Source: Coptis chinensis
Taxonomy: Eukaryota; Streptophyta; Magnoliopsida; Ranunculales; Ranunculaceae
Assembly: GCA_015680905.1 (NCBI GenBank)
Contig: CM027379.1
Span: forward strand, 93,209,501-93,273,500
DNA: 64,000 bases
Reading direction: 5' to 3'
Of this stretch, positions 661 to 63,535 are shown one piece after another. Under the pieces are notes generated by a model. The model saw nothing but the letters and a program-made list of their open reading frames with translations. It was not told the origin of the DNA and did no database searches. Made by a program: the position numbers and the translations under genes. Every line of letters starts with the position of its first letter. Within the stretch, counting starts at the first letter, position 1.

Positions 661-1543
661 TGTTGGAATCTTCATGTGTATTTCAAATACTTGTGTGTTG
701 TTTAGTCCCACATTGATGAACCACCACTAGCAAGTGAGGTATTTGAGGTGAACCTCTAGCATAAGGGCGTGCCCTTAGGGTACAAAGGCTTTTGTGTTAG
801 GAGGGAGGACTCACCCAAAAACACACTGCAGCGCCCGCAAGCCGAACCGTCGTGTAGGTAATGTATGGAGGCTTGGGCTTGGGCTGTTAGACTAGTGGGT
901 AGTGGATCATCAATAGCCTAAACTTTTTCTTTTTTTGAACTAAGTTTAAATTTTGGAGTTCCACTAACAGTTGGATTACGTATCGGCTTGAGAGTTCTAC
1001 TTTGATTTGGTTTTGTGAAACCAAATTAGAGAGGTGTCCTTCTCCATCTATGATTCGATCATACCTCTATATAAACAACTGCTTTGTGTTCATTAGAGAA
1101 ATTGATCCGAGAGAGAGAGAGAGAGGGACCTGAAGAGAACTTCGTGTATCTGATCTTTAGCTCTTTGCTCTATATTGAGAAAGAAGACAAAAGTCGTCTT
1201 TGCCTCCATACTGAGAACCGAAAAAGCGAAGTTGAAGTCGTTGATACACCCATCTCACCATTACGAATAGGAGATAAGTCTTTGATTGCTTCAATCTTCT
1301 TCTTTTCTCTTCTTCTGTCGGCCGCCGAGAGAGAGTTATATTCTTTGTTCTAGAGGGTAGTCTATTCTAGTGCAAAGTTAGGCTGCTTTTAACCATTGAA
1401 TCTGTGAGGAAGGCATGCTTGTTGCCTTTACGCACCATTGGAAGAAGGCGAAATCTTTCCTTAAGAACGACCTAATCCAGCGCCTTGGTTATTACATTTA
1501 TTACGTCCTTGTCTTCTATAAGTTTCTTTTATCTACATCAACA
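661..1543 (+). repeat. Copia family A LTR, copy 1
   Basis: It begins TGTTGG and ends in CA just before ATCTTAAGG. A TATA-like box (CTATATAAACA) lies near 1067, so transcription probably starts around 1095-1100, followed by a GA-rich stretch. A GC-rich patch near 830-870 differs strongly among the three LTRs. U5 carries the segment 1453-1466 that is the reverse complement of the sequence just after the LTR. Confidence 0.88.
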
Positions 1544-1544
1544 A

Positions 1545-1558
1545 TCTTAAGGAAAGAT
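1545..1558 (+). promoter_or_regulatory. Putative self-complementary primer-binding site, copy 1
   Basis: The sequence directly after the LTR, TCTTAAGGAAAGAT, is not a TGG-starting tRNA-complementary site. It is the exact reverse complement of 1453-1466 in U5 of the same LTR (14 of 14 nt). The copia consensus site TGGTATCAGAGC for initiator tRNA-Met was not seen here or elsewhere in the window. A role in priming is inferred from position and complementarity. Confidence 0.6.
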
Positions 1559-6141: not shown

Positions 6142-7036
6142 TGTTGGAATCTTCATGTGTATTTCAAATACTTGTGTGTTGTTTAGTCCCACATTGATGA
6201 ACCACCACTAGCAAGTGAGGTATTTGAGGTGAACCTCTAGCATAAAGCGTGCCCTTAGGGTACAAAGGCTTTTGTGTTAGGAGGGAGGACTCACCCAAAA
6301 CCAAAGCTGCAGCAGCGCCCTTGCCCCGCCAGAGCCGGCAGGCGAGTGGGCGTGGGTAATGGGTGGGCTTGGGCTTGGAACATTATAGTCTAGTGGGTAG
6401 TGGATTATCAATAGCCTAAACTTTTCTTTTTTGAACAAGTTTGGTGGAGTTCCACTACTGAGTTGGATTACGTATCGGCTTGAGAGTTCTACTTTGATTT
6501 GGTTTTGTGAAACCGAATTAGAGGTGTCCTTCTCCATCTATGATTCGATCATACCTCTATATAAACAACTTTGTGTTCATTAGAGGATCGATCCAAACGA
6601 GAGAGAGAGAGGACTTGAGAGAGATAGAACTTCGTGTATCTGCTTTGCTTTTTCTTCTATATCGACTAAGATAGAAGTCGTGCATCTTCTTTGCCTCTAT
6701 AGAACCAATGAAACCGAAGAGAAACTTGAAGTCGATACTATCCCTTCATCTCACCATACCGAATCGAGAAAAGCGGATAAGTCTTTGATTGCTTTCTTTA
6801 TTCTCTTCTTCTGTCGGCCGCCCGAGAGTTATATTCTTTGTTCTAGAGGGTAGTCTATTCTAGTGCAAAGTTAGGCTGCTGTTAACCATTGAATCTGTGA
6901 GGAAAGGCGCCCTTTGTTGCCTTTACGCACCATTGGAAGGGGCTTTCTTTCCTTAAGGACTGACCTAATCAGCGCCTTGGTTATTACATTTATTACGTCC
7001 TTGTCTTCTATTGTTTTCTTTTATCTGCATACAACA
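6142..7036 (+). repeat. Copia family A LTR, copy 2 (shared middle LTR)
   Basis: This LTR is both the 3' LTR of the first internal region and the 5' LTR of the second. It starts TGTTGGAATC and ends ACAACA before ATCTTAAGG. U5 contains TCTTTCCTTAAG at 6946-6957, the exact reverse complement of 7039-7050 just past the LTR (12 nt). A TATA-like box lies near 6557. Confidence 0.88.
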
Positions 7037-7038: not shown

Positions 7039-7050
7039 CTTAAGGAAAGA
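7039..7050 (+). promoter_or_regulatory. Putative self-complementary primer-binding site, copy 2
   Basis: CTTAAGGAAAGA directly after the middle LTR pairs perfectly with U5 segment 6946-6957. It occupies the same position as the site after LTR 1. No tRNA-type TGG start is present. Confidence 0.6.
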
Positions 7051-24377: not shown

Positions 24378-24385
24378 TCCAACAA

Positions 24386-28170: not shown

Positions 28171-28399
28171 CTTTGATATTGATATAGCGGCTGAGTCCTC
28201 TGATGGAGAGCCGTGGTACCACGACATTCGTGAGTATCTTCACCATCAACGACTCCCTAATGGTCTGACTAAAAGAGAATGACGATCACTTCGGGTTTTA
28301 GCTTGCCAGTTTATCATATGTGGAGATGTTCTATACAAGGGGTCGTACGATGGGATTTTACTCAAATGCTTGAATGAGAATGAAGCTCGGACAGTTATG

Positions 28400-29460: not shown

Positions 29461-30043
29461 CCCAACCTTGTTTTTTTTAGACAAAGAGTATAGTGGAAAT
29501 CTTAGAGAGATGATGGAACAGGCCATTTTTACCTGATATATTAGCCTAACAGGCCCACCCAATGTCGTATGTTTCCTCTAGAAGCCATTTTGAGCCTTAG
29601 CCTTTTCTTTCATCCCCACGATTTGACCTATGTCCTTTAGGAAACCAGATTTACCCTTAGCCTACCCATAGATACCCCAATTCCATTTTATAGAACTTGT
29701 CATGATTAGGAAAATCACTTTCATCATCAATTATTGATCGTTAAGTATCTACTATGGTCCCAATCTACAATATGCTATGATTACCCCAATGGTTACCCCC
29801 AAGAGAAGCTGCAAAAAAAAAAAAAAAAAAAAATCTATGCAAGGGGCAGTACAAATCAATTCAAGGGACGGTTCATATGAAGTTTAGGATATTTTATCAT
29901 TTTCTTTTCATGACAAGTTCTACCCTATATTAGAAAAAAAAAATCCTTATTCTCTTAACCCGCTACCTAAGCCTACATTAGTCCTATGAAAGTCCGTTCT
30001 TGATCTTTAGATCCACTATGTCTCCTAGTTGAGAAATGTTCAA

Positions 30044-30082
<39 letters not shown>

Positions 30083-30823
30083 GAGGATACACTGATATAG
30101 TGTAATCCATTCAGAAGTTATAGAGGCCAGAAGGAATGTTTTCGGAAGTGTCTCTAAGAAGTTGTCCTATGTTTACTTTATGATCATTTTGAGTGGTGGA
30201 AAGGATTTATTGTTGGTTTTCAGCATATAGTGGAGATCATGCAATCAGATAGGGAAAAGGGTGGTGTGTGCTTACTACTTTTTGGTGTTAAGATTAATCG
30301 TACTCCTATCCTGAGGTCGTTCTAGTGAGGATCTTCTTGTCGGTAACTCATTCCCACACCTTCACTTATTATTCAATCATTTGTGGTATTTCTTGTTCTG
30401 TGGATAAAAAATATTTTGTTTTACATTGTTTTCAAAAAAAAATATATATATATATTTGTTTTCGAAAACTTGGTTTGCTTTGGATGGCTGATGATGAAGA
30501 ATCTAGGTTAACATTACATAGAGGATTCTGAAGCAATATATCCAAAATAAACCATGCCATTTCATTAATCAGTTTCATGCATTCTTTCTAACCACTCATG
30601 CATACTAACATAGAGTTTCAACCATGCTCACATAAAAGCATTTCCTTATTACATATCATATTTAATGTAAAGCGCCTACCTAATTTGTGTGTCGAGTGGT
30701 TTAGTTGTCCAGGGACTACTTGTTGCTATACAGCCATCTCCGGTAGCATCATGCAATTGGAAAATCCCATGCATTCAGATCCTAACATGACCGAACCTTA
30801 CCGGTCTTTGGGTATATGGTTAT

Positions 30824-31879
30824 TTATCGGCGGCTCTTGCTAATCTTCCACCGGTGAATTCTCCAATTAATGTTTGGAAAATCGGATTGGACCATGCGAA
30901 ATCTGTTGGCTATATGAGTTTCCGACGGATAACTCGTGAAAGAGATGCGGTGAAGGTACATGGCCAAAACATTCCTGGCCCCCCCCACCCCCATTGGTTG
31001 AGTTCGCAAGAAGTCTGTATGGGTGCTTAACCACAACTGTAAAACAGTACAAGGTAAAAAAAAATAAAAAAAACTTACCCAAAGGAGTTGAGAACTCCCG
31101 GTGAAGGGTTGATCGTTCGTGGTGTTATCGAGACCAATGATAGTTTCAACAAGAACGAGGGCGGCTATATTGGAGTTTATGCCTAAAGAATGGGTGGTAA
31201 CCAACGGGATGAGAGACACCATTTCTGATGTACGATTACAGAGAAGGACCTTGTCCAAGACATAGACACATAAGGCTACAACTTTGTTTGGTGCTCGTAT
31301 GACTGCAGATGGAGACGAGTAACGATGTGGTTCCGAGGAACGAGGGTATGATCGCATTTCTTCCCAGGGTGCCCGCACTAATTCACCTTGGTCTATGACT
31401 CCAAGCCGGGTTGCAAATTCCTCCACATTTGGGATGAGTTCAGAGTCTCCGAATTGGAAAGTATGAGAGGAAGAATTCCAGTACTTTAAAGCTAGCTTTA
31501 TTGTGATCCAGTCAAGTTCAAATGGCAGTAATCCGAGGGAATTTCCTAGGTTATACCCGGCGAAAGTATGCATTTCGCTGTCACTAAAGTTCTCTGTTAT
31601 CCAGCAAGGTATGTCTACCTCTCCAGGAATAAGGTTTCCTACGACAAAGGGAAAGGAAAAGGTTTCATCTGATATCATCAGTAGGCCCAACAATAGCATG
31701 CATGTGTATATACTATGCGTTTTGTTTTGCTGACATATAAGAAAAAAAAGAGAAGAACATGACATGAGCCAAAGGAAGGAAAGCAAGCTTACCATCGCCT
31801 GAAGAGGATGACTGTGAGGCGGCTGCCATATTGACTCTCTATACCGGTTGTGGAAAAAGTTGGTGAGGTACGTATGCAC
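30824..31879 (-). CDS. Antisense ORF of the Tat element, plant mobile domain-like
   Basis: An uninterrupted 351-residue frame on the strand opposite to pol. The middle part (GLLPFELDWITIKLALKYWNSSSHTFQFGDSELIPNVEEFATRLGVI) looks like the start of plant mobile domain (aminotransferase-like) proteins. Extra ORFs of this type are known in Tat-lineage elements; function is unknown. An intron is possible at 31730-31792 (GTAAGC ... TATATGTCAG on the minus strand). It would remove a hydrophobic stretch and keep the frame (63 bp). A 42-bp GT-AG stretch at 31037-31078 is probably too short for a plant intron. That this frame is open while the sense frames are broken is notable. Confidence 0.65.
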   Translation of the reverse strand: MHTYLTNFFHNRYRESIWQPPHSHPLQAMVSLLSFLWLMSCSSLFFLICQQNKTHSIYTCMLLLGLLMISDETFSFPFVVGNLIPGEVDIPCWITENFSDSEMHTFAGYNLGNSLGLLPFELDWITIKLALKYWNSSSHTFQFGDSELIPNVEEFATRLGVIDQGELVRAPWEEMRSYPRSSEPHRYSSPSAVIRAPNKVVALCVYVLDKVLLCNRTSEMVSLIPLVTTHSLGINSNIAALVLVETIIGLDNTTNDQPFTGSSQLLWVSFFYFFLPCTVLQLWLSTHTDFLRTQPMGVGGARNVLAMYLHRISFTSYPSETHIANRFRMVQSDFPNINWRIHRWKISKSRR

Positions 31880-32204
31880 CTTCTCAAGCCTATATATAGC
31901 GTTCCTTTGCTCCAGCTTTTAGAAGTTGCAGGTCCTTGCATAAATCACAAATGGAAAGTGCTGATGGGCCTTAACAAGAGAAGGGAATAAAGCCGGAATA
32001 GAGCTGTAGGCTCAGTACTTGTTCGTGTGTTTTGGAGGTAAGAAAAGGTAATAAGGCGGTTTCTCTTTCTATTTTGAATTTTGGGAAGTTTCTTTTTTGT
32101 CCTTTTACTGAGATTCCTTCCCTTTTTTAAAAAAGCTGTTCTAATTCAATTATTCAGTGCAAGCACCAGATAAGGAAGGTCGGGTACCCCTTACCTATTT
32201 TGGC

Positions 32205-32362
32205 ATAAGGTTCGGTCCTGTTCAACCAGGTTTGGACCCGTTTGATCCGGTTGGCCCAGGTTGACCCGGTTGGTCTAGACCGACCCGGGTTTGAGCTGTT
32301 TGACCCGGTTCTCACCAGTTGACCCGGTTTTGACCAGTTTTGACAGTTGACCAAGTTTGACC
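32205..32362. repeat. Degenerate GACCCGGTTTGACC tandem array
   Basis: Roughly a dozen imperfect copies of a 10-18 bp unit built from TTGACC and CCGGTT (for example TTGACCCGGTT near 32260, TTTGACCCGGTT near 32299, GTTGACCCGGTTTTGACC near 32319). It lies in the untranslated 3' part of the Tat element, where short arrays are often seen. Confidence 0.8.
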
Positions 32363-33004
32363 AAAAAAAAAAATTTCCAAAAACTTTTCAAAAATAAAAA
32401 AAATGATGAATATTAGTACCATGGGGTTCTTACCCTCCAGTATGAGAAAATATTCATCAAGTTTTGTTTTCACCATCACACTATTGGCAACCACTTGATC
32501 ATTAATATCATTTCGGTAACTCCATTTGTGCAACATTAAAATTGTTCGCTAGAACAATGTCAGTTTTACTGACAGCCTCATGGATGGATCAGCCTAAACT
32601 CTTAGTGACAGTCTTTTCCAATTTGAACGTAATTGATTGATTGATTGATTGAACTTGAACATCATCATCCCCAGCATCTATCTTTCATCTCCAGCACATC
32701 TCTTATCTTCTCCAACAGTGTTCGTATGTGTCTTCTTCCTTTATCTTTATAATCTTTCATCTCCAGTGGATCTTCTTGCTCTCCCCGGTGAGTCTTTCGT
32801 CAGTGTTTGGTTATCATCATTATATGAGAATTTTTAATCTAAGTCAAAATCATGAATGAATTGATCTATCCATTTAATTTCACCAGTTTTCTAAAATGAA
32901 TTTGAAAAATAACATATTTCAAAAAAAAATTGTCCCTTGATTTCAAAAAAGTTGTTCATCATTTTCAGAAAATATTTTTCAATCAACCAATATCATGTTA
33001 TGCA

Positions 33005-33130
33005 GTGTAAGTCCGTCCGATGCTTCCGCTAGCATTGATATTTTGTCTTGTGGTATAAGTCCGTCTGATGCTTCCACAGATAATCCAGTTACCATGTTGT
33101 GTGGTATAAGTCCGTTCGATGCATCCACCA
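33005..33130. repeat. Three-copy repeat of about 48 bp (TAAGTCCGTC.GATGC)
   Basis: GTAAGTCCGTCCGATGCTTCC near 33007, ATAAGTCCGTCTGATGCTTCC near 33056 and ATAAGTCCGTTCGATGCATCC near 33106 mark three diverged units, each followed by a TTGT/GTGGT segment. It sits between the antisense ORF and the 3' LTR. Confidence 0.75.
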
Positions 33131-33336
33131 ACATTCAATCATTTTTAAGCCCTCACAAACAACTTGAAAAAAATCAAGGATTTCAAATATCTAGGGAAAT
33201 GCCCTCTTTCAAAAATATTTTTTCAAATGAATTTTCAAAAATTGTATGAGATCTTTTGGCTGGAGCTTGGCAAAAATGGTTTGTCTCCATGGCTTTGCCG
33301 TTCCGTTGCAAGCAACCTCCGCCAAAGAGAGGCAAC

Positions 33337-35055
33337 TGTAGACACCCTATTTTTGCACCCCATGCATAATTCATTCACGATTTTGCCTTGAATTAAATTT
33401 GATCATATAAGGTGATTTGCTTTCTAGAGTCTTCATTTCTATATCAAAATTCTTTCTTTTCATCTTCTTTTAGCGTCTTTAGACTCTCCTCATCATGTTC
33501 TAGCTATGGCTGAAGTTTCGTTGTTTTCTGAGTTTTGAGATGAAAATGACCAAAATGCCCCTGTAACCCTTTGGAGCCCAAATCTCGTTTTTTCCACTCT
33601 TTCTTTGGATGAGATTATTTCATATTTTAGTTCCCCTTAAAAAATCCTTTGAAATGACTACAAGCTTGCCTAGGTTCCTTTTGGATTTCAGAAACCCTAA
33701 TTTTGCCCTATCCCGTTTCAGCCCATTGTGCACACTGTTGAGTGCAACAATTTTTTGGAGTAAGATTCCGACCCAAGGGTATTTTTAAGAGTTCATGGAC
33801 CTTCTTAATGGATTAATTAACATTTTTTGTGAAGAATAGCTTGCCTAATTTTGACCCGGTCAAGGGGAATTTGCAGCATTGAAAATATGGTCAAAATAGG
33901 CCTTTTTTGTTAGATTTGGACATATTCTCATGGGCTGTGGATCCAACTCGAGTTGGACCTTTTCATTAGGGTTTCTAGCCCATTTTTAAGCCTCTAAAAA
34001 ACTAGAGAACCTTCCTTATTTGTTTGATTTGATTTGATCCCTAAAATCAAGAATATTCTAGAGAATATGCCATTTTGGAGCCAAGTTTGGAAACCCTGGA
34101 TTATGGGCTCATTGAGGACGTGTAGGGCTTGATTTTTTGCCCTAATCCATCTGAAATATCCAAAAATCAAGGGCCAAGATTGCACCCCTTATCCCACCTC
34201 TTGAATCAAGGGCCAGATTTAGGAGGTGCAACCAGAAAGAGATCAAGCCATTGGATTTTTCTTCATCAATACTCAGCCATTGGATCAAACTCATTACCAT
34301 ATTGAAATCCATCCCAAAAAGCTATAAATATGGGTCTCATTCACCCACAAAAAAATAATCTAGAGCAAGCTAGAGCTAGGAATTCGGAGTTAATAATCTG
34401 GACCTAGTTATTCAGAGCTAATAAATTTCTTTTCGGTGTTTGTTCTTCATTTTTTTCTTTCTAGTTCTTCATTTTTAGCCTTCTTTTCTTCTCGTTGATC
34501 TTGAGTAGAAACTTCTTTTCACCAAAAGTTGTTTTTTCCTCAAATCACCTGTTTCAATCCAAAAATCACAGTTGTCAATCCAAAATCAAGTTTATCATCA
34601 TCATTCATCAACAATCAATCAAGATCATCAATCAATCAATCAATCTACAATCAAGTATGAAGCAACATTCCAAACAAGGTGACATCTTTATTTTCTCTTT
34701 TATTTTAATTAATATTGCATATTATGATTATTTGTTTTTTTTAGTTTTACTATAGCATATAGTCATTTGCTTTAAATAATTTAGTGAAGATCATCCAACT
34801 TGGTAGATTATTTTTCAAGCTTTCTTCGTTTGCCTATCTTAAAACTTTGCATCTCAATAGAAGTAAGGCTGGTTTTACCAGGCGATTGTGGGTGCCTAAC
34901 ACCTTCCCACATCGTACCTTGACTCCCGAACCCAATAATCATCTAGTTTCGAGGGCTAGTCCTTCACATAGGTTTTACTCAATTTTTCCTCAATAAAGTT
35001 AGTGGCAACTCTAAAATCAATTGCATAGACCTAGGTACACATTTTTGTGCGTACA
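33337..35055 (+). repeat. Tat element 3' LTR, complete
   Basis: It starts TGTAGACACCCTATTTTTGC, a common start of plant gypsy LTRs, and ends near GTGCGTACA. From about 33789 it matches the truncated 5' LTR at 20580-21847 closely. A TATA-like CTATAAATATGG lies near 34322. Length about 1.72 kb. Confidence 0.88.
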
Positions 35056-42034: not shown

Positions 42035-45000
42035 TCAAGCAAGAAGACCAACCGAAGTTGAACACAACTTCAACTTCTCAGTAGGCACGGTCTTGGTCAA
42101 CATATCCGCCGAATTCTCACTCCCTTGGATCTTCTCAAGTGCCAAAACCTCATCCTCCAATAGAGATCGGATAAAATGATATCGGAGACCAATGTGCTTG
42201 GTCCTAAAATGAAAGGCGGAATTCTTAGCAAGATGTATAGCACTGATCGGGCCATGTAACACACTTCTCTCTTGCTTCATCCCAAGCTCTTCCATCAATC
42301 CCTGTAACCAACTCATCTCTTTGCTTGCCTCTGTAGCGGCCACATACTCTGCTTCTGTGGTAGACAAAGCAACGATCTTCTGTAACTAAGAAATCCAACT
42401 CACTGTAGTGGCACTCCATCGTAAAGACATAACCCGGAAAAGTGCTTCTCCTGCGATCTACCTCACCTGCAAAGTCGGCGTCCACATACCCTTGCAAGTT
42501 CACAACACCCCTTCCATAACATAGGCATTTCTCAGTAGTACCTCTCAGATATCTCAATATCCACTTCACGGCTTTCCAATGTTGCTTTCTAGGATTAGAC
42601 ATAAATCGACTGACACCTCCCACTGCTTGGGCTATATCCGGACGCGTGCAAACCATGGCATACATAAGACTTCCAATGGAAAAGGCGTATAGTACCTTAG
42701 CCATGAAGTTGCTTTCCGCAATAGTCTTGGGAGAGTGTTCCTTGGACAACTTGAAGTGGACTGCCAAAGGTGTGCAAACTGGTTTCGCACCACCCATGTT
42801 AAACCTCTTCAATACCTTCTCAACATACTCAGCCTGAGATAACTCCAGAATACCTTTCTGTCTATCTCTTCCTGTACCACTGCCTAGGGGCTTGTTTCAA
42901 ACCATACAAGCTCTTTCTGAGCCTGCATACCATATTCTCTTTACCCTTCTTGATGAAACCCTCTGGTTGCTGCATGTAAATTTCCTCAACTAGGTCACCA
43001 TGGAGGAAAGCAGTTTTAACATCCAACTGCTCAAGATACAAATCTTCCGCTGCAACAATACTCAACACTGGCCGAATAGTATTGGTTTCACGGCTGGGAG
43101 AATATCTTTGTGAAGTCAACGCCGCTTTACGCTGAAAACCCTTGACTACTAGCCTCGCTTTGTATCTCACGGGAACCATCATGTTTCTTTTTTGACTCTA
43201 AACACCCATTTGTTCTCAGAGCCTTCTTGCCCATGGGTAGTTTGGCTAACTCCCACGCGCCATTAGAGATGAGGGACTTCATCTCATCTTGCATAGCAAG
43301 CTCCCACTTGCTTGCATCTTTCGCCTTCAATGCTTCATCATAGCATTAAAGCTCGCCACTATCAGTAAGTAGCAAGTAATTCACATAGGTGGAGGGCGGA
43401 TATCTCGTACTCGGTACATGTGGCCTGGATGTCTTCCTTGGGGAACGAGGTGGAGATGGACTTGGTAGTGTAGTATCCTCACTATTCTCTGAGTCACTAC
43501 CATCGCTATCCTCCTCGATCGGGGCTCCCACTATACCACGACTTATATCGAAGTCTTCCAACTCAACATACTCTGTGCTGCTCTTTGTACCCGATTCCTT
43601 GGTTTGTGCTTCATCTCTGTCCTTGTACATCACCTTCTCATTAAACACAATATCTCTTCTACGAATGATTTTTTGATTTTGATCATCCCAAAAGCGATAC
43701 CCAAAATCATCACCACCATAGCCGATAAAGGTACACCTTAGTGACTTAGCATCAAGCTTGCTTCTAGCTTGGTCACTAATGTGAACATAGGACACACAAC
43801 CAAACACCTTCTCGCTCCACACTTCCTCTGGAATCTTAAAATCCAAAGGTACTAATGGTCCTCTATTGATCAGGTAAGCTGCTGTGCTAATACTTAATTT
43901 TCTGCCTTTAATCGTTATAAGCCTCGCTAGTGCACGATACACCTAGCTCTCTCTCTGGCTGTTCTATTCAATTAAAAAGAACCCCATTCTCACGAGGTGT
44001 CCCCCGGCAAAGTCTTTTCCATCTTGATGCCATTGTCGACGACAAGACTTCTTAAAATCTGAATCTTCATACTTCCACCGTTGTCGAATCTCAGCTTTTT
44101 TACTTTCAAGCTTGTCTCATTCTCAACCATGGCCTTCCAAGTCTTGAACACTTCAAATACTTCTGACTTGTGTCTCAATAAATAGACCCACACCTTCCTA
44201 GTATGGTCATCAATGAAAGTCACAAAATATAACTTTCCACCAAGTGAAGAGACATTAGCTGGCCCCCAGACATCTGTATGAATCAACTCAAGCCTTCTAG
44301 CTTTCGGAGTCTGACCTATTCTCTGAAAACTCACCCACTTCTGCTTTCCAAATACGCAGTTCTCACAGAAGTCAATTTCAGTCAACTGTAACTTTGGGAG
44401 TTTACCAGAAGAGTGAAGGATTTTCATTCCTTTCTCACTCATGTGACCAAGTCTGCGGTGCCAAACATTCGGATCCTCTTTGCCATGTGCCACAGTAATC
44501 GACTCACACCCATGTGTAGTCATGTAGAGAGTACCATCTTTCTTACCATTTGCAACAACCAATGAACCCTTCGAGACCATCCAAGTGTTACCGGTGAAGA
44601 CTGTAACAAATCCTTCACTCGCTAATTGCCCCACAGAAATCAAATTCTTTCTCAAATCCGGAACGTGTCTTACGTCCCTCAATAACCATGACGAGCCATT
44701 CATCTTGACATGCACATCACCCTTGCCGACAATGTCACAAGGTTGGTCATCGCCGAGAAAGACCGTTCCAAGGTCACCTTCGGCGTAGTTCTCAAAGAAC
44801 TCTCGATGTGAGGTAGCATGGAAAGATGCACCGGAATCAAGTACCCAAAACTCCTTCTTTTGCTCCATTGAACATATCAAGGCATCATCTACCATCTCAA
44901 CAACATTAGCTTCTTGATTCTTTTTCTTGTTCTTATTAATGTTGTTGTTGTTTCTTGGTGCCGAGCAATTGGGACTATAGTGCCCAGGCCTACCACAGTT

Positions 45001-45740
45001 GTAGCATACAACTTCACTTAAGTCTCGAGGTTTATGTTCAACGCTTTGCAATTGGGGGGCTTGAGATTTTGATCTCCCCCTCCACTTTTTCTTACTTTTA
45101 CTAACTCGTTTGACTTTCTTCCCCTACTTTTCAATTCCGACTCGACCACGAAGTTGACCCCGAAGATGAAGGACAATCCTGTCTCCGGATTTCCTCGGTT
45201 AGTACCATACTAACAACGTGCTCAAACTTCAACTTGGTCATTCCCGCAGAGCCACTAATAGCCACCACAGTCGCCTTCCAACTTGGAGGCAACTGTCCAA
45301 GTATCGCCAAAGCTAGCACCTCATCACTAAATGTAATCTCAACCGACTCCAATTGGTCCTTAGTTTTGTTGAATTCATTTAGGTGATCCTTAAAGGAGGT
45401 CCCCTCCAACATTCTCATACTAAATAGCTTGGTGATCAAATAGACTTTGTTCGCGGCCGAGGGTTGTTCATACATCGTAGTAAGTGCCTCCAAAAGAGAT
45501 TTCGCCCTCTTCTCGATTTTAATATTGAAGGATACCGACTTTGAGAGACTCAATCGGATTGTGGCCAATGCATTTCTATCTTGCAAATCCCATTGTCTTT
45601 CGGAATCTCAGCGGGCTTCTCACTTATCAATGTTTCCATCGAATCCTTTTGATAGAGTACGTCCTCGATTTGCATCTTCTAATAGCCGAAGTTTGTTCCG
45701 TCAAACTTCTCTATCTTGTAGCTTTCCTTTTCGGTTGTGA
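42035..45740 (-). pseudogene. Copia family C polyprotein, RT catalytic core deleted
   Basis: Gag starts near 45720 (EKFDGTNFGYWKM-like) and continues open at 45586-45131. The zinc knuckle CYNCGRPGHYSPNC is near 44967-45008. Protease has VLDSGASFHATS near 44830. Pre-integrase WHRRLGHMSEKG and the integrase CENC pair follow at 44470-44340. The integrase core has HTDVWGP and FIDDHTRKVWVYLL near 44260-44170; the region after 43990 is frameshifted. The integrase C-terminus is open at 43942-43346. RT starts at 43330 (WELAMQDEMKSLISNGAWEL) with FLHGDLVEEIYMQQPEGF and ends at QAPRQWY near 42880. It then jumps to QKGILELSQAEYVEKVLKRFN, so the segment with the YVDD motif is missing. RNase H (STTEAEYVAATEA) follows. 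Tnt1/Tork-like in type. Confidence 0.85.
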
Positions 45741-46540: not shown

Positions 46541-50197
<3,657 letters not shown>

Positions 50198-50253
50198 GAG
50201 ACCACATATCTAACTTATTTATATGCTTTTTCTTAACTGAAAAGTAGTTAGTA

Positions 50254-50258
50254 ATAAG
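50254..50258. repeat. Target-site duplication ATAAG, left
   Basis: ATAAG precedes the LTR start at 50259 and recurs at 55914-55918 right after the other LTR, proving one insertion event for 50259-55913. Confidence 0.93.
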
Positions 50259-50881
50259 TGTTAGAATAGTTGTATGAACACAACAACTAAAGTAGAACAG
50301 AAGGAACAGTAGCAATGAAGAAACAAGGACAGCAGTAACTGGGAAAAACCAAGGCGCGGATTAGAACGTCCTTAAGGAAAGATTTCCCCTTCCAATGGTG
50401 CGAAGGCAACAACAAATGGCGTCGCCTCACAGGATTCAATGGTTAACAAGCAGCCTGACTTTGCACTAGAACAGACTACCCTCTAGAACAGCAGAATATA
50501 ACTCTCGGCGGCGGCTGACAGGAATAAGAGAAGAAGAAAAGGACTGGTTTGAGTTTTTCGTTTTTCTCGAGTTGAGTTTCGATCAAGTCTTCTCTCTATG
50601 GACTCACAGTCCTATTTATAGAGGTTAGGAGGAAGAGAGACCAACTCCTAATAGAACACTGAAACTTGCTGCTCAAGAAAAAGGCAAAACAAGTTTAGGC
50701 TATTGGTCAAACCACTACCCACAAACATAAAGCCCAAGCCCAGCCCAAACCCTACCCGATGTAGTGGATAACTAATGTGGGACTATCTACTATGCACTAA
50801 AGTGCAGAGAACACCATTTGTTCATCTCCTCCACTTTGCACACACACACTAGTATTTAGAAATACACAAGAGATTCCAACA
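50259..50881 (-). repeat. 3' LTR of the 50259-55913 copia
   Basis: Minus strand starts TGTTGGAATCTCTTGTG and ends ATTCTAACA. It matches 55297-55913 closely. Its polypurine side (50882-50923) shows the doubled AATAGTGGGGA motif. TATA-like box (CTATAAATAGGAC on the minus strand) near 50610. Confidence 0.88.
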
Positions 50882-55279: not shown

Positions 55280-55294
55280 AAATCTTTCCTTAAG
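55280..55294 (-). promoter_or_regulatory. Putative self-complementary primer-binding site (family A relative)
   Basis: The minus-strand sequence after the 5' LTR, CTTAAGGAAAGATTT, pairs perfectly over 15 nt with U5 at 55408-55422 of the same LTR. No TGG-type tRNA site is present. Same position and core sequence as at 1545 and 7039. Confidence 0.62.
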
Positions 55295-55296: not shown

Positions 55297-55913
55297 TGTT
55301 AGAATAGTTGTATGAACACAACAACTAAAGTAGAAACATGAAGGAGCGAGCAATGAAGAAACAAGGACGGCGATGGCGGGAATAACCAAGGCGCGGATTT
55401 AGTCGTCCTTAAGGAAAGATTTAAGCCCTTCCAATGGTGCAGAAAGGCAACAAATGCGTCTTTTCCACACAGGATTCAATGGTTAACAGCAGCCTGACTT
55501 TGCACTAGAACAGACTACCCTCTAGAACAGCAATATAACTCTCTCTGGCGGCTGACGGGAATAAGAGAATAAGAAAAGGACTGGTTTGAGTTTCTCTGAG
55601 TTGAGTTTCTGATCAAATCTATTTTCTCTATGGACTCACAGTCCTATTTATAGAGGTTAGGAGGAAGAGAGACCAACTCCTAATAGAACACTGAAACTTG
55701 CTGCTCAAGAAAAAGACAAAACAAGTTTAGGCTATTGGTCAAACCACTACCCACAACAGTAAGCCCAAGCCCAGGCCCGAACCCTACCCGATGTGGTGGA
55801 TAACCAATGTGGGACTATCTACTATGCACTAAAGTGGAGATAACACCATTTGTTCATCTCCTCCACTTTGCACACACACACTAGTATTTAGAAATACACA
55901 AGAGATTCCAACA
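55297..55913 (-). repeat. 5' LTR of the 50259-55913 copia
   Basis: 617 bp, followed by TSD ATAAG at 55914. It holds the U5 segment 55408-55422 complementary to the primer-site position. TATA-like CTATAAATAGGAC (minus) near 55647. Confidence 0.88.
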
Positions 55914-55943: not shown

Positions 55944-55948
55944 AAATG
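55944..55948. repeat. Target-site duplication AAATG, left
   Basis: AAATG precedes the LTR at 55949 and recurs at 61325-61329 after the other LTR, defining 55949-61324 as one insertion. Confidence 0.93.
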
Positions 55949-56465
55949 TGTTGGTAACAATTGCTGCAACAAGAACAAACTGTGAATAAGAAGGCTGGCT
56001 GAGGCACGGATCAAAAGCTTTCTTTAAGGTTGTTTCGCGTCTGTTCCTCTTTATGCAGACAAAGCGCGTCAACCTCCAGGATACAACAGCCAGATAGACT
56101 CTCCTTTGTTTACTGGAGATAAACCAAAGAAGAAAAGAAAAACCACGATTCTGATCTTATGAAAGCCCTTAACTTAGTATAGAAAATAGTTTTTGCACCC
56201 ATTATTAGCTGCTGCTCTGGGAGTATTTATAGAGGAAAACGTGGAGCACTTAGTAAATCCGGATAGGGCACTGATCCAGTTTCCCGATAAGAATTGGATT
56301 CTACAAGTCTATCACATCTGTTTCCCAATCCATATCCAATTCTGTTTCCAAACTTATCCGGAAACAGTTTAAAGAAAATGGTCAACCAAAAAGAAGATAA
56401 GGGATCAAAGAGAGCCCAAGCCCAAGCCCAAGTTCACATCTTGTTTTATTCAAAATAACACAACA
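55949..56465 (-). repeat. 3' LTR of copia family B
   Basis: Minus strand starts TGTTGTGTTATTTTGAAT and ends GTTACCAACA. U5 contains 56023-56035 (TTTAAGGTTGTTT on the plus strand), the perfect complement of the site at 60790-60802. TATA-like CTATAAATACTCC on the minus strand near 56230. Confidence 0.9.
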
Positions 56466-59401
56466 ATCCCCCACTTATTTTTGATAAAAACAAAATAGAA
56501 AATATACTTAAGGGCAATCAATATCAGTATCAACATGTTATGCATAGATAAAGGTGTCCAAGACTTAAACCTTTACGTAGTGAAAATTACTCAAAGTATA
56601 AGAACCATAAGTGACTAAGTCTTAAACTTAGGTATTGAGTATACAATAAGTTATAATCACGCACAATATATCCAGTGTTCTTCTTTCATGTTCTACACAT
56701 TAAAGGCCCTGTGCTCTCCTGGATTCGTGAATGATCCAGAGAATCATCCCTCATTCTCATAGAAAGCGGCCTCTACTTTCATATTCACTAGGTGAGTCTA
56801 TCAAGAGTGCTCCTGTAGCTATGCACTCCGCCCATAAGGACCATAGAACTTCATTAAGAGTTTTTCCCAGAAAACCTCAACCTCTATTTATCGCTGCAGG
56901 ATTTCATACATTTTACTATCCAACTACGGGACAGATAAGTAACAATGTATGTCTCACAACCAACATTCTATGACTTGTTCTTCCCTTTGAACCTAGTTCT
57001 TGGGATCTCCAGTCCCTAGGTTGGGTTACCATCATAGATGTTCACCTTTCAATTGGCTTCAGTCCCATGCTAGTAGAGCAGTCCACATTGTATCTCTGGC
57101 CAGAGCTTTGGTTTGTGAATCTGCAAGATTATCTTCAGATCTCACAAAATCAAAATAATATGGACTCTCCCAGTAATAGCTGTAATGCTATCAACAAAGT
57201 ATCATTGTAATTAATACCGTCTATCTTAGACTAGTATATGAGTAAGAAAGCCTTGTACTCAACTAGTTTCTTCACTCGTACTAGCCAAAGCAATAATCTC
57301 ATACTCCATAGCAAACTGTGCTATCATGGTCTGTTTCTTGGACTTCCAAGATACAACACCTCCACCAATGCTAAACACATAGCCACTGGTGACCTCGGAG
57401 TTTTCTGAAAGGATGTTCCAATTCGAATCTATTGCTTGCTAGTATACCTGCAAATAACACCTACTACATAGGCAATGTCAGGTCTTAAACAATCTGTAGC
57501 ATATCTCAAACTACCAATGATACTTGCATATTCCTTCTGATTCACAGGTTCACCATTATTCGCAAATAATTTAACACAGGAATTAAAAAGAGTACTCACA
57601 ATCACGCAATCAAAGTAGTTATACTTCTTCAACATTTTCTCAATGTAGTGTGACTGATCCAGCCATATGCTATCAGACGATCTTGTAATTTTGATTCCCA
57701 ATATTACATCAGCCTCACCTAAGTCCTTCATATCAAAGTTAGAAGACAATAGGTTCTTGGTTTCTTTTACAACATGTAAATTGGAACCAAAGATTAGTAG
57801 ATCATCAACATATAAGCATATAATAACACATATCCCATCAGAATACTTATGATAAATGCACTTGTCACTTTCATTTATCTTGAACCCACTGGTAATTATA
57901 AAGTTATCAAACTTCTCATGCCATTGTTTAGGTGCCTGTTTCAACCCATAAAGTGACTTAAGTAATCTGCATACCTTTTTACCATTACCTGGTTCACATA
58001 ACCTGTTGGCTGATCCATGTAAATCTCCTCTTCTAAATCCCCATTTAGAAAGGTTGTCTTAACATCCATCTGATGAATAACAAGATTATGAATAGCATCA
58101 ACAGAAAATAATACTCTAATGGATGTTATCCGTGTAACAGGTGAATATGTGTCAAAGAAACCAAGTTCTCTCTCTGTCTAAAGCCCTTGCTAACAATTCT
58201 TGCTTTAAACTTATCCACTGAACCATCGGTTTTAAACTTCCTTCTCAAAACCCATTTGATTCCTATAGTTTTACAACCAATAGGCAAATAAACAAGTTTC
58301 CAAGTTTTGTTTTCCATGAGAGAATCAATCTCACTCGAATGACTTCTCTTCAAAACTTGAAATCAAAAGATATGAGAGCTTCTTCAATGGAGGGATCTCC
58401 TTCCAAATTACAGTGACAAAGTCGGGTCCCAAAACCTTAGTGACCCTAAGCTCTTTTATATCTTCTAGGTTCATCTTCTCTGTCCATGATCCTATCATGC
58501 AATCTAGATATGTCAGTGTCAGAAACATCATTATTAGGGGCCTTGGAGGATACTACCCTCACTCGCACCCCCACTATTTCTAGATAAATATGGAAATCTA
58601 TCTTCAAGAAACTCAATAGAAGATGATCAACAAAAACATTACTCTTCATATCTAGAAAAACGTAGGCATTGCTCTCCATAGCATTGCCTAAAACGACACA
58701 CTCATAAGCTTTGCTCTCAAACTTTGAGATCTTGGGATCATGCTTCCTTACAAAAGCCAAACATCCCCATATTCTGAAGTAAGTCAAATTAGGTTTCCTA
58801 TTCTTCAATAGCTCATAAAGTGTAATCTTTGTATTAGAATTAGCAATTCTATCCAACACATATATAGCTAATAATCAAAGCGGCTTCCTCCACAAATTTG
58901 AGGGTGCTCTTAACTAAGCAACATAGCAACAATTAATCCCTTTAAGTGTTCTGTTCTTACGTTTATCTACTCCATTCATTCCATATGAACAAGGAGTTGT
59001 CATCTCATGAATAATACCATGTGATTGCAAGAAAAAGATTAAAATCAGCATAACCATATCCAGTACCTCAATCACTTTGAATTACTTTAATGTTCCTATC
59101 ATGCTGATTTTGAACCTCAAGTACATAAGCTTTAAAAGCATAAAAAACACTACTTTTTATCTTCAACAATTAAACATATGTAAATTTCGAGCAACCATCA
59201 ATAAACATAATAAAATATATTTTTTCCAGCTCTAGTCAGAACACCTTCAAGCTCACAAATATCAGTGTATACCAAGTCTAGCAGATTTGTATTTCTTTCA
59301 ACTGACTTGTGACGCTCCTTTGTGATTTTGGCCTTAGTGCAAGATCCACCGTGTACAAAATCATCACTATCCAAATTAGGAATTAAACCAAGTATGCTCA
59401 T
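56466..59401 (-). pseudogene. Copia family B pol remnants (integrase, RT, RNase H)
   Basis: Integrase core start at 59401-59198 (NLLDLVYTDICELEGVLTRAGKN). Integrase C-terminal part at 58859-58446 (KPNLTYFRIWGCLAFVRKHDPKISKFESKAYECVVLG). RT start at 58353-58126 (EIDSLMENKTWKLVYLPIGCKTIGIKWVLRRKFKTDGSVDKFKARIVSKGF). RT core at 57944-57429 (QAPKQWHEKF, catalytic LYVDDLLIFGS, DMKDLGEADVILGIKI, then SLRYATDCLRPDIAYVVG), the best preserved piece. RNase H follows to about 57270 (EVTSGYVFSIGGGVVSWKSKKQ in a shifted frame). Not coding as one protein as written. Confidence 0.82.
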
Positions 59402-60376
59402 GTTCTTAATATATTTTCTATTAATATGACATAATCTACCATGCCAACATTAACAGAACAAGAAATCACGTAAGTAGAAGTAAAATATCATTAAGATCAG
59501 CATCATCCAATTCGGTCCATACACCTAACAATCTCCACCTTGGATCGAAATTGGTCTAACCGAACCATCGATTTTGTCTCACCAATCAGGCATGACCAGG
59601 GCCAAGTCTAGGGACCATCCATAGTACCCTCACAGATGTCTCACTCAAGACTGATATTGTCCCTAACCTAAGCCATCACTTGGCCCAAACCTCAGTTGGA
59701 CCTCATCTAAGGTGTGGGGTTCTATATCAATAGAAGTGTAGCTCCATTACTACTACATGTAGGATCAACAAACTTCAATATCTCCTTACATGCATATCCC
59801 TTACCAACAAAGACACCAACCTTGGTGATCATATATGTACAAAAGAGAAATTAATCTCAAACAATTATATCTAGTCAATGAAAAAACTTTCAAAGCATGT
59901 TAATCAACACCCAGTGCCACAACATATTGACTAGATAAATAACCAAAATATATAGACTTAGGTTTTAAATTTCCTTAAATTAAAAACCCTAGCATGTAAT
60001 TCTATGTTTTAATCCATCTCACAATATAAAACAAAGAATTTCATAGATTTGGTAAGGAATACGATACCTATCCGATTGAAAAATCGGATTTTCACATTTT
60101 GCTATTCGACGAGAAATTGGCCCATAAAAAACTGTAAAACTAAATCAGTCCTGGACGAATTAAGATTCAAGCCATACACCGTTGGAAACATCTCTGAGTT
60201 AGCTTTCTAATACAAAAAGCGGATTGTTAATCCGACATTTGAGCAAAACGTTATGGCCGGTTTCGTTGAGCGTGTCATAGCAGTCCGAATTTGGTTTCAT
60301 ATCGAACAAACTATATATTCAAAGTTCAAACAAGCTCACTAGATTTTCCATCTGACGTGCGACATGTGCTTACACA
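59402..60376 (-). other. Family B leader/gag region without recognisable protein
   Basis: No gag protein is recognised. Parts of the leader near 60060-60330 resemble 54790-55100 of the other copia (for example GATACCTATCCGATTGAAAAATCGG), so the two families share a leader. An antisense ORF across this region in the other element is probably meaningless. Confidence 0.45.
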
Positions 60377-60761
60377 TCACTTCTTATTGGCTACTTCTAC
60401 ATGTGCTCTTAATTTTTCATGACATCTTATGTCCTTTAAACTTTCAGTTTTGGGGTCATAAGAAACAATAACCACCTCATTGCGCCATCGTAAAAGTCCA
60501 CCACCTTTGCCCTTTGGTAAGAGCAAAAACTTTGTACCTGTGTTGGGCTTCTCACCGTATGCTCTTTCTGCAAGGTTTGAAACAAGGTGGCGATGAAACC
60601 ACTCGAAATTCTTCACTTGTCAAAGTCGAACGCAATAATTTTCTGATAGTAGCAACCGCGAACAATAGAAAAGTTTCTCGTTCATCCAATGAAGAGCTCC
60701 GTTCACAGAAACTATTATAGTGTAATACCTTGTAATCCCATAAATGAAAACTAGAAAACAA
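60377..60761 (-). pseudogene. F-box-associated domain fragment inside the copia leader
   Basis: On the minus strand, in two frames: VNGALHWMNE and then SEEFRVVSSPPCFKPCRKSIR (ORF starting 60761). It continues in the other frame as LLRWRNEVVIVSYDPKTESLKDIRCHEK to the stop at 60377. This is the C-terminal half of a plant F-box-associated interaction domain. It lies between the 5' LTR of a copia element and its leader, where no host gene is expected. The other copia has only about 100 bp at this point. It probably represents host sequence captured by the element. Confidence 0.65.
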
Positions 60762-60789
60762 ATCTTAACCTTTCTTCATATTCACTGTA

Positions 60790-60802
60790 AAACAACCTTA
60801 AA
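60790..60802 (-). promoter_or_regulatory. Putative self-complementary primer-binding site (family B)
   Basis: The minus-strand sequence after the 5' LTR is TTTAAGGTTGTTT. U5 of the 3' LTR (56023-56035) is its perfect complement (13 nt). U5 of the adjacent 5' LTR (60879-60891) matches 12 of 13, with one change at 60884. The sequence differs from family A, but the position and self-match are the same. Confidence 0.6.
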
Positions 60803-60804
60803 AT

Positions 60805-61324
60805 TGTTGGTAACAATTGCTGCAACAAGAACAAACTGTGAATAAGAAGGCTGGCTGAGGCACGGATCAAACGCTTTCTTTAATGTTGTTTCGCGTCACG
60901 TTTCCTCTTTTATGCGGATAAAGCGCGTCAACCTCCAAAGATACAACAGCGGATAGACTCTCCTTTGTTTACTGCAGATAAACCAAAGAAGAAAAGAAAA
61001 ACCACGATTCTGATCTTATGAAAGCCCTCAACTTAGTATAGAAAATAGTTTTTGCACCCATTATTAGCTGCTGCTCTAGGAGTATTTATAGAGGAAAACG
61101 TGGAGCACTTAGTAGATCCAGATAGGGCACTGATCCAGTTTCCCGATAAGAATTGGATTCTACAAGTCTATCACATCTGTTTCCCAATCCATATCCAATT
61201 CTGTTTCCAAACTTATTCGGAAACAGTTTAAAGAAAATGGTCTACCAAAAAGAAGATAAGGGATCAAAGAGAGCCCAAGCCCAAGCCCAAGTTCACATCT
61301 TGTTTTATTCAAAATAACACAACA
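60805..61324 (-). repeat. 5' LTR of copia family B
   Basis: 520 bp, followed by TSD AAATG at 61325. A few substitutions and indels separate it from 55949-56465. Confidence 0.9.
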
Positions 61325-63535
61325 AAATGTAATACGAAATAAGACTATTGGCTTGTAAAACTACATTGAGGCAAACTAATTAACTGTATCAATTTACTTT
61401 AGAGACTAGAGTAAAGTACATTGAAGCTACACTGCTTCAATATATATACTCAATTTTTTTTCCCCATAATGACTTCAATATACTCTAGATGTCTTAGAGC
61501 TTTCTTTCTTCAGTGTAAACATGACAAGAGTACGATTCTATACTATCATCCCTAAGATGATTTCTATGGACTAATTTCTAAAGCAATTCGTTGTACAAAC
61601 AGAATATACTTCAATACTTTCTTTGCTTGCCCAATCGAGCACCCATAAGCAAATTTATTGTAGTGATACTTCTAGGGGTGAGGTTGCAGAGGCAGCTACT
61701 TATTAGTTAGCATTCATTCAATTCTAGCTAATAGTCTCTAGGGTGAAACTTTGACCAAATCACCGAATGATGCTTTATTTTCACAACCTCTCATAAAAGA
61801 GTAAAAATCCAAACTATTATTGAATAGACCCAAATGTTATGTCCCCGTCATATATGTGCAACCGACGTAGTAGCACTGACTACCACAAAGAAGCTTTGAG
61901 TTGATGGCAGGGGTGGATCTAGAATTGCCACTCAAGGGGGGCTGCTACTACTAACATACACTTAGGGATAAATAGAGTTCTCTCTTCTTTGGACAACAAA
62001 GAGACTGAACTAGTATTTCTTTTGCAACAATCTAAATTGGGAAATGATAGACTATTTAAGAAGACCTGCCAACATGTAAAAGAGTATCTAGGGATAACCA
62101 AATTTTCCAAACTAATCTATATCACCTTGTCTTTGCAAACGGCACAGTGCCTCGTAGACACTCTTCAAAGTGAATTTCTTAGTCTCTAGACAATTAAGTC
62201 ATCTCACTAAATGTATAAAGTCGATAATCTCAGTAAATTGTCTCCTATTTTCTAGACATGGCATCAAAGAGGATCAGATCCATCTCTGCCTTTTCTGTTC
62301 CCCAAAATATAGGTGATTACCTAGATGAGATAAAATTTGTTCCTGGGCTCATTGCCCAATACTAACATAACATGTGAAGTCTTAATCTCCAATAACATTT
62401 TGTCTCCCGCGTTTGACTCTTTTTTATTGTTGAAGTATCAAAGGCCCATGTATAAGAACTTTGGTTTAAGTACCTAACAGTAACATGTACGCATAAAATT
62501 GACGTGCAGACACTATGAAACACATACACGAAACAAGACATGGATAAGCCCGACGGTGCGAATCTGACCCTTTTCAAACGGTAGGGATACGGCAATTCTA
62601 AGCAGATTAAGCAATAAGCAACATAACTTCGGTTGGATCAATTCGCCTCTTGTTTTGTTTTAAATGAGTGAATCCCTATTCTCGGTGAAAAAATATCAAA
62701 AAGCGAACAAAAATACACAAATAGTGCCATGTGCATGTCACGCACGTCCTCGATGTGTCAAAAGCGTTCCCAAAGTTGTAAAATATTCAAAGATTGGATA
62801 CTTCAACCGATTATATCGGATACATGTCGGAGGCAAATCGGGGAGTATTGATATCCAATACGTGTTGGACACAGATAGTTTGCCTCTGAAGAAGTAGCTG
62901 TGCTTCATAGTGCAAAAGTAGCACACATATTGGTGACAGAGACACCAAGTACAATGCTTCCATTACCAATAACGAAACAATGGTGGCTGTGATTCGGAAC
63001 CAAAAAGGCAGTGGAGCGACTTGTGATCTTTGGGGTCAATGTTTGTCCCGATTAGAATGCTCCTTGCCCAATAAACATCTTTGTTGCTCTGCCTAAGTTT
63101 GTATCTCTCTCAATTATGATCGTCACAAGCATAGAAGAATATCTCTTTTTTTTTTCTCCATGAGTCAAATAAATTTATTACATTAATATCACCAAATTTG
63201 GTTCTTTTGTGGTTTGTACATATTACTCCTCAAAATCCCGACTGTAAAACTGATTACTTAACCTAGAATCTGAACACTCCACCAAGATTCCAATGCCCAT
63301 GGAAAGCTTGAGAAGTCTATTTTCGGGAACAACAAACGGTTTGTAAAACAAAGGAATGAGCAGAAAGTTATGTACACCCATCGACGCATGGCGAAAACCA
63401 ACTAACCTAAACAATTGAAGGCATGAAAGAAAAATCCAATAAAACAACGAGGAAACATGGAGAGTTATTCAAAATCATGGCAGCAGGAAAACTAATTTCA
63501 AATGATAAAGGGAGCAAAAGTTATTTGTACCACAA
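61325..63535. other. Region without recognised genes
   Basis: No coding sequence with a recognisable product. The first bases continue the host sequence broken by the two copia insertions and were once upstream of the subtilase. Short ORFs at 61989 and 62664 have no recognisable features. Confidence 0.4.

What the first reader, a model, noticed from the sequence alone, without database searches (positions are those of the whole stretch)
56023..60802. A second copia family has a different sequence but the same self-complementary design
Family B has TTTAAGGTTGTTT after its 5' LTR (60790-60802, minus strand) and the perfect 13-nt complement in U5 (56023-56035; 12 of 13 in the adjacent LTR). Families A and B differ in the paired sequence, but each matches itself at a similar distance from the LTR end (about 75-110 nt). 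This is natural covariation between families and the strongest support for a functional stem.
Basis: partly seen in the sequence, partly recalled or inferred. Interest (0 to 1): 0.88.

Follow-up and report, generated by a model that had tools for sequence, protein, structure and literature searches.

The report
Self-priming site in plant copia retrotransposons
Several related families of a plant jumping gene carry, just behind their left end, a short sequence that pairs with a stretch inside their own end repeat, most likely so that a piece of their own RNA, not a cell tRNA, starts the copying into DNA; this mechanism was already predicted for one plant lineage, and here it is backed by strong co-variation between families.

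Summary
Family B (minus strand, LTRs 60805-61324 and 55949-56465, TSD AAATG) has TTTAAGGTTGTTT starting at the third base after its 5' LTR, and the perfect 13-nt complement in U5 of the 3' LTR (12 of 13 in the 5' LTR). It is not chance (0 of 4279 internal windows and 0 of 5000 shuffles reach 13).

The window's genome (936 Mb, plant) could be searched. Related copia elements fall into eight pairing types. Of 60 copies, 52 pair with their own U5 at 10 or more of 12 Watson-Crick positions and 34 at all 12; against U5s of other families 0 of 2206 comparisons reach 12. Ten of 14 helix positions change on both sides between types.

Best reading: a self-primer and its PBS. Neumann et al. 2019 (PMC6317226) already predict self-priming for the TAR lineage of plant Ty1/copia, so this is a known kind. 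TAR membership could not be tested. Unlike Tf1, the paired U5 stretch seems to lie about 165-370 nt inside the transcript (inferred from TATA boxes). Priming itself was not shown, and the control with tRNA-primed copia of this genome did not complete.

The parts
60805..61324 (-). Family B 5' LTR (520 bp, TGTTGT...CCAACA)
   Evidence: self-comparison and TG/CA ends
55949..56465 (-). Family B 3' LTR (517 bp), 96% identical to the 5' LTR
61325..61329 (.). Target-site duplication AAATG (5' side of the element)
55944..55948 (.). Target-site duplication AAATG (3' side of the element)
60790..60802 (-). PBS-position sequence TTTAAGGTTGTTT, +3 to +15 after the 5' LTR, behind the spacer AT (60803-60804)
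56023..56035 (-). U5 segment AAACAACCTTAAA in the 3' LTR, perfect complement of the PBS, 74 nt from the LTR end
60879..60891 (-). U5 segment AAACAACATTAAA in the 5' LTR, 12 of 13 complementary
61083..61090 (-). TATA box TATAAATA of the 5' LTR, about 200 nt upstream of the U5 segment
56466..56483 (-). Polypurine tract CAAAAATAAGTGGGGGAT before the 3' LTR; its last two bases AT mirror the AT spacer after the 5' LTR
57429..57944 (-). Family B reverse-transcriptase piece (171 aa, RVT_2), query for the genome search
   Evidence: Pfam PF07727, E 1.7e-25
58446..58859 (-). Family B piece with the SH3_retrovirus domain, upstream of the reverse transcriptase
   Evidence: PF25597
55297..55913 (-). Family A reverse element, 5' LTR
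50259..50881 (-). Family A reverse element, 3' LTR (TSD CTTAT)
55280..55294 (-). Family A reverse element PBS CTTAAGGAAAGATTT (+3 to +17)
55408..55422 (-). Family A reverse element U5 segment AAATCTTTCCTTAAG, 15 of 15 complementary, 111 nt from the LTR end
1545..1558 (+). Family A forward element 1 PBS TCTTAAGGAAAGAT (LTR 661-1543)
1453..1466 (+). Family A forward element 1 U5 segment ATCTTTCCTTAAGA, 14 of 14
7039..7050 (+). Family A forward element 2 PBS CTTAAGGAAAGA (LTR 6142-7036)
6946..6957 (+). Family A forward element 2 U5 segment TCTTTCCTTAAG, 12 of 12

Best explanation
The bases after the 5' LTR are a primer-binding site for a self-primer. A stretch of the element's own R-U5 RNA pairs with the PBS (shown as conserved, co-varying complementarity). 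The RNA is then cut just 3' of that stretch, probably by the element's RNase H as in Tf1 (inferred). The freed 3' end starts minus-strand cDNA 1-2 nt before the LTR end (inferred from the register). No tRNA is used (inferred). Each round of copying could re-template the PBS from the U5 primer, which would keep the two matched while both drift between families (inferred). Whether the pairing acts within one RNA or between the two packaged RNAs is left open.
For: Exact pairing at the PBS position, matched by no internal window and by at most a few of 5000 shuffles for the 5' LTRs of A and the 3' LTR of B (0, 1, 1, 6). Genome-wide: 113 sites match the 22-base B junction at up to 2 mismatches, 11 for the reversed pattern; 19 of 28 B loci keep a perfect complement of 12 nt or more. 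A scan of the CA positions of 20 further windows gave as its best hit the LTR/PBS junction in 10 of 20: types A, E and F. Own versus other-family U5: 52 of 60 at 10 or more of 12 and 34 of 60 at 12, against 253 and 0 of 2206. Double changes at 10 of 14 positions over 8 representatives, also without the poorly placed one; type H adds a 13-nt perfect match. Of the 52 well-paired copies 41 start at +3 and 11 at +2, all five type E copies among the latter. No TGG in the first 12 nt of the A or B PBS, and no match beyond 5 nt to two plant tRNAs recalled from memory. The A and B U5 segments occupy the same aligned position. Published precedent: TAR elements predicted to self-prime (PMC6317226).
Against: No RNA or cDNA evidence. 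Single-sequence folding of the inferred R-U5-PBS RNA forms the helix in only 1 of 27 folded rows, 26 distinct copies. Within family B the helix shows no both-side changes, and that alignment held 18 loci that I had picked for an intact helix. Nine of 28 B loci lack a 12-nt perfect complement, and 8 of 60 copies fall below 10 of 12, including some with an intact PBS. Tested singly, 7 of 9 elements (L031, L032, L039, L040, L043, L044, L046) are equalled by some of their own internal windows. If the TATA boxes mark the start, a cut at this site would leave a strong-stop cDNA of only about 75-125 nt, so strand transfer must work otherwise than in Tf1. The control with tRNA-primed copia elements of this genome and the comparison with its own tRNAs did not complete. 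One survey reports tRNA-type PBSs of 14 bp or more for all its Medicago copia families (PMC2533021, passage), which sits badly with a tRNA-free lineage there; I did not look into its data.
Confidence: 0.78

Rival explanations
1. The stem is real but is not the primer. U5 folds onto the PBS region to shield it, to package or dimerise the RNA or to place the reverse transcriptase (like the retroviral U5-IR/PBS stems), and a tRNA or tRNA fragment is the primer.
For: In Tf1 further duplexes between LTR and PBS-adjacent sequence are needed beside the primer helix (PMC10085805, passages); U5-leader stems of retroviruses are recalled. The LTR end of family B also folds locally in the alignment model.
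Against: The PBS differs beyond +8 between types (AAGGTTG, AAGGAAAG, AAGACGAAA, AAGACAGAT, AAGGTGAAA, AAGACAATA), so a separate tRNA would be needed for each; no TGG in the first 12 nt of A or B. The genome's own tRNAs could not be fetched, so this is not closed.
Confidence: 0.15
2. A variant of the best explanation, not exclusive of it: self-priming in trans. The U5 fragment cut from one RNA of the packaged dimer primes on the PBS of the other RNA, which stays whole up to its cap.
For: The single-strand fold seldom forms the helix (1 of 27 rows), and an internal cut in cis would shorten the strong-stop template, which trans use avoids (inference).
Against: No direct evidence; for Tf1 the cited paper describes the helix within one mRNA (passages).
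Confidence: 0.25
3. Chance or inherited similarity without function.
For: The types share a core (AAG invariant at helix positions 4-6), so part of the match is common descent; cross-family pairs reach 10 of 12 in 235 and 11 of 12 in 18 of 2206 comparisons.
Against: The family-specific part of the helix changes on both sides together; 0 of 2206 cross pairs reach 12 against 34 of 60 own pairs.
Confidence: 0.02

Closest known systems
TAR lineage of plant Ty1/copia (REXdb; includes Houba and Osr-1), Neumann et al. 2019, PMC6317226
   Same: Copia-type reverse transcriptase; no tRNA PBS found; complement of at least 10 bp starting 0-5 bp after the 5' LTR found inside the LTR; self-priming predicted.
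   Different: Lineage assignment by RT/RH/INT tree could not be tested here. The parts of the paper that I saw (abstract, passages, sections 13, 20 and 32 part 2) give no family-to-family covariation, primer position or register.
Tf1/sushi self-primed retrotransposons (PMC10085805, passages)
   Same: A sequence of the element's own RNA pairs with a PBS behind the 5' LTR and serves as primer.
   Different: Tf1 is a Ty3/gypsy chromovirus, and its self-primer is the very 5' end of the mRNA; here the element is copia and the paired stretch appears to be about 165-370 nt downstream of the start (TATA-based inference).
tRNA-Met-primed plant copia (PBS TGGTATCAGAGCC, e.g. grapevine Noble, PMC2576258, passage)
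   Same: Same superfamily and layout.
   Different: PBS of the tRNA type; no exact one in this window.
Bianca/Osser half-tRNA-primed copia (PMC6317226, passages)
   Same: Copia without a 3'-tRNA PBS.
   Different: PBS matches a half-tRNA; no match beyond 5 nt to initiator-Met or Ile tRNA as recalled from memory.

Membership tests
Ty1/copia superfamily | Copia-type reverse transcriptase (RVT_2, PF07727) downstream of the integrase region | tested here: met
   RVT_2 in two family B pieces, SH3_retrovirus upstream of them in the transcript; no integrase core hit was obtained for B itself
Self-primed LTR retrotransposons (criterion of PMC6317226: complement of at least 10 bp in the 5' LTR to a region starting 0-5 bp behind it) | Complementary stretch inside the 5' LTR | tested here: met
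   Met for the family: perfect runs of 12 or more in 19 of 28 B loci, 15 nt in the reverse A element. Not met letter for letter by the window's own B 5' LTR, which has one mismatch (12 of 13).
Self-primed LTR retrotransposons | cDNA actually begins on a U5-derived RNA | not testable with these tools
   needs strong-stop cDNA ends
TAR lineage | Clusters with TAR in RT, RH and INT trees | not testable with these tools
   No labelled reference proteins; the nearest hits were unnamed or plainly named plant proteins, the best named ones from Cucumis melo
TAR lineage | Self-priming type of PBS | tested here: met
Tf1/sushi | Ty3/gypsy chromovirus proteins | tested here: not met
   Copia-type RVT_2
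[quoted passage not shown]
   TATA boxes at 283-286 (B), 356-362 (A reverse) and 476-479 nt (A forward, two complete LTRs) from the LTR end put the start well upstream; start sites not mapped
tRNA-primed copia | TGG... PBS complementary to a tRNA 3' end | tested here: not met
   No TGG in the first 12 nt of A or B; no exact TGGTATCAGAGC in the window. Not compared with the genome's own tRNAs.

The most novel reading that the evidence does not exclude
A copia self-primer that is internal to the transcript: the RNA is cut about 165-370 nt from its cap, so the primer is the whole capped 5' leader fragment, probably used in trans on the partner RNA of the dimer; U5 and PBS are kept matched because each new PBS is copied from the primer, letting families switch primer sequence while keeping a CTTAAG-like core.
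Probability: 0.3. Interest if true: 0.62.

Novelty: new member of a known kind. Interest (0 to 1): 0.42.

Why it matters
Self-priming has been studied by experiment for Tf1 (known here through summaries in two later papers); for plant copia the paper that I read gives a sequence prediction. The co-varying pairs from one genome turn that prediction into a well-supported base-paired element with a defined register, and so predict where the first cDNA base and the RNA cut lie. They also raise a concrete puzzle, a primer apparently inside the transcript and not at its 5' end. Practically, PBS finders that look only for tRNA matches would call such elements PBS-less.

Tried and rejected
Chance: rejected by internal windows, shuffles and cross-family U5s. 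Misplaced LTR ends: TSDs speak against it. tRNA or half-tRNA PBS: no support, but tested only against two tRNAs recalled from memory and by the missing TGG; no tRNA gene in the window. A hairpin right behind the U5 segment as a cut signal: seen in types D, E and F (z about -1 to -3, E copies L061 and L065 failing), no consistent one in A, B and C, so not part of the common design. Minimum-energy fold as support: failed (1 of 27 rows). One search found no LTRs in any of 20 stretches, which I put down to a wrong BLAST option; one search repeated it with the gap and score options removed. The positions printed were wrong (coding slip, and forward A LTR ends one base off) and were redone. In one search one row (L039) landed in a poor register; one search recounted without it. 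A relative search in viral contigs found nothing. Passages of PMC4963935, PMC3352295, PMC4535378, PMC4659654 and PMC2206039 gave nothing on this point; PMC5445492 (passages) says that no U5 repeat complementary to the PBS-position motif was found in its fungal copia elements. Controls wanted but unanswered: tRNA-primed copia of this genome and genome tRNAs.

Rows dropped before the count of 60: of 20 loci, L033, L038, L041, L045, L048 (LTR end not settled, or LTRs broken); of 20, L056, L057, L058, L060, L062, L067. Looked at afterwards: L057 shows a 13-nt match (type H), L058 and L056 keep a PBS but lack the U5 match, L045 shows 14 of 15 with its 3' LTR, L060, L062 and L067 gave no LTR end that I could see. 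LTR ends of L064, L065, L068, L070 were set by homology or by eye, those of L034, L036, L050 and of the B loci by the PBS motif itself. The 20 B loci were hand-picked from the places that one search listed.
Full report
What was checked. The family B element lies on the minus strand of the window. Its LTRs are 60805-61324 (5') and 55949-56465 (3'), with TG...CA ends and a 5-bp target-site duplication AAATG. Behind the 5' LTR the strand reads AT-TTTAAGGTTGTTT-TACAG. U5 of the 3' LTR holds AAACAACCTTAAA, 74 nt from the LTR end; U5 of the 5' LTR holds the same with one mismatch. There is no exact tRNA-Met PBS core TGGTATCAGAGC in the window.

Family A. Three more 5' LTR/PBS junctions in the window (LTRs 661-1543, 6142-7036 and, on the minus strand, 55297-55913) carry ATCTTAAGGAAAGAT and a U5 stretch of 14, 12 and 15 complementary bases in the 5' LTR. 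The pairing starts at +3 after the LTR in B and in two of the three A junctions; in the first forward one the 14-nt run starts at +2. Aligned, the A and B U5 stretches fall on the same place, within a base or so.

Chance. For each element I took the post-LTR bases and asked for the longest perfect complement in its LTR that begins within 6 nt, then did the same for every window inside the element and for 5000 dinucleotide shuffles of the LTR. B (3' LTR): 13 nt, 0 of 4279 and 0 of 5000. Reverse A: 15 nt with either LTR, 0 of 4355 and 1 of 5000 each. Forward A, 5' LTRs: 14 nt, 0 of 4538 and 1 of 5000; 12 nt, 0 of 4539 and 6 of 5000. Forward A, downstream LTRs: 12 nt, 10 of 5000; 11 nt, 27 of 5000, and no internal window for either. 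B against its own 5' LTR: only 5, because of the mismatch. The gypsy element gave 5, with a start set 6 nt inside its PBS.

The rest of the genome. The window lies in a 936-Mb plant genome (the reverse-transcriptase piece has plant proteins as its named relatives). The 22-base B junction has 113 matches at up to 2 mismatches, against 11 for the reversed pattern. I looked at 28, the window's copy and 27 others (7 given by the search, 20 picked by hand from the places listed). Of the 28, 19 keep a perfect complement of 12 or more bases in U5 and 9 do not. RNAalifold on 18 of the 19 predicts the 13-bp U5-PBS helix unaided, but these were chosen for being intact and the helix has no both-side change.

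Other families. I searched the genome with the B reverse-transcriptase piece (150 of 9169 candidates scored, identities 99-55%) and with that of a distant element (150 of 9287 scored), fetched 20 stretches of 9.8 kb and 20 of 1.2 kb, and located LTR pairs. The pairing types are: B and C (TTTAAGGTTG...), C2 (one element, TTTAAGGTA, weak), A (CTTAAGGAAAGAT), D (CTTAAGACGAAAA), E (CTTAAGACAGATTT, start at +2), F (CTGAAGGTGAAATT), G (one element, CGAAAGACGAATTTC, with its 3' LTR, 14 of 15) and H (one element, CTTAAGACAATAT, 13 of 13). A scan that tried the CA positions 260-1150 of the 20 short windows put a true LTR/PBS junction first in 10 of 20: L051-L055 and L059 (A), L061 and L063 (E), L066 and L069 (F).

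The decisive comparison. Over 60 copies with an LTR end set, the best 12-bp pairing with the copy's own U5 (last 250 nt) has 12 Watson-Crick pairs in 34, 11 in 12, 10 in 6 and fewer in 8. With U5s of other families, 2206 comparisons give 12 in none, 11 in 18 and 10 in 235 (C and C2 counted with B). Of the 52 copies at 10 or more, 41 start at +3 and 11 at +2, among them all five type E copies. Over eight representatives, 10 of 14 helix positions show Watson-Crick pairs that differ on both sides, and the same 10 without the representative that landed in a poor register (L039); positions 4-6 (AAG) never vary and position 2 varies only once, without pairing. Taken singly, 7 of 9 elements tested against every seventh of their own internal windows (L031, L032, L039, L040, L043, L044, L046) are equalled by some, and 2 (L035, L049) by none; the strength lies in the set.

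How it works. The complementarity, its register and its covariation are shown. That it is a primer is inferred: it sits where a PBS sits, no tRNA match was found in the limited test made, and the published survey of plant elements (PMC6317226; abstract, passages, sections 13, 20 and 32 part 2 read) predicts self-priming for the TAR lineage by much the same criterion, and for 12% of its elements in all. The cut behind the U5 stretch is inferred from Tf1. In B and A the bases between PBS and LTR are AT, and the polypurine tract also ends in AT before the 3' LTR, so a cDNA begun at +2 would carry two extra bases at both ends, as an integrase substrate might; type E has only one base on the PBS side.

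What does not fit neatly. [quoted passage not shown] Here the six complete LTRs examined have a TATA box in a shared CCTCTATA context, 283-286, 356-362 or 476-479 nt from the LTR end, so the paired stretch would lie about 165-370 nt inside the transcript. A cut there in cis would leave a short strong-stop template. Either the start lies elsewhere, or the poly(A) site lies downstream of the stretch, or the primer acts in trans. Folding the inferred leader gives the helix as the minimum-energy structure in 1 of 27 rows (26 distinct copies; five further loci had no TATA match), which also speaks against a simple cis hairpin.

Place among known systems. It works like the self-primed elements. It is a copia element (RVT_2), so not Tf1/sushi. 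Whether it is TAR could not be tested for lack of labelled references. One Medicago survey reports tRNA-type PBSs for all its copia families (PMC2533021, passage), against the expectation for a self-primed lineage. None of the titles and abstract beginnings listed by my literature searches announces covariation of a copia self-primer between families; subscription papers are not covered, and of the listed papers I opened ten and saw only passages or sections of them.

Noticed in passing
661-12472: Three family A LTRs share two internal regions (LTR-inside-LTR-inside-LTR), a tandem array as left by unequal recombination; the third LTR is cut short.
   Followed up: partly
50003-50259, minus strand: The 3' LTR of the reverse family A element ends about 60 bp upstream of an ORF that by eye looks like a secreted subtilase N-terminus (no Pfam hit); the LTR might serve as its promoter.
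   Followed up: no
L042, L044, L049, L046, L063, L064, L066, L069, L070: A short hairpin directly behind the U5 segment in types D, E and F, with no consistent counterpart in A, B and C.
   Followed up: partly
L046, L047, L061, L063, L064, L065: Type E has one spacer base between LTR and PBS, not two, while its polypurine side keeps AT (seen in L046 and L047).
   Followed up: partly
20582-35050: A pair of about 1.26-kb LTRs about 12 kb apart, with TTTTTTGGCGACTCCGCTGGGG behind the first; recalled as a tRNA-Arg-type PBS of Tat/Ogre gypsy elements.
   Followed up: no
42225-45586, minus strand: A separate copia remnant with gag, zinc-knuckle, integrase and SH3 domains (by eye Tnt1/Tork-like), for which the self-comparison showed no LTR pair.
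   Followed up: no
14741-14995: A short tandem array with a unit of about 65 bp (self-comparison).
   Followed up: no
L056, L058: Copies with an intact PBS whose U5 stretch is gone from the expected place, apparently replaced by other sequence.
   Followed up: partly
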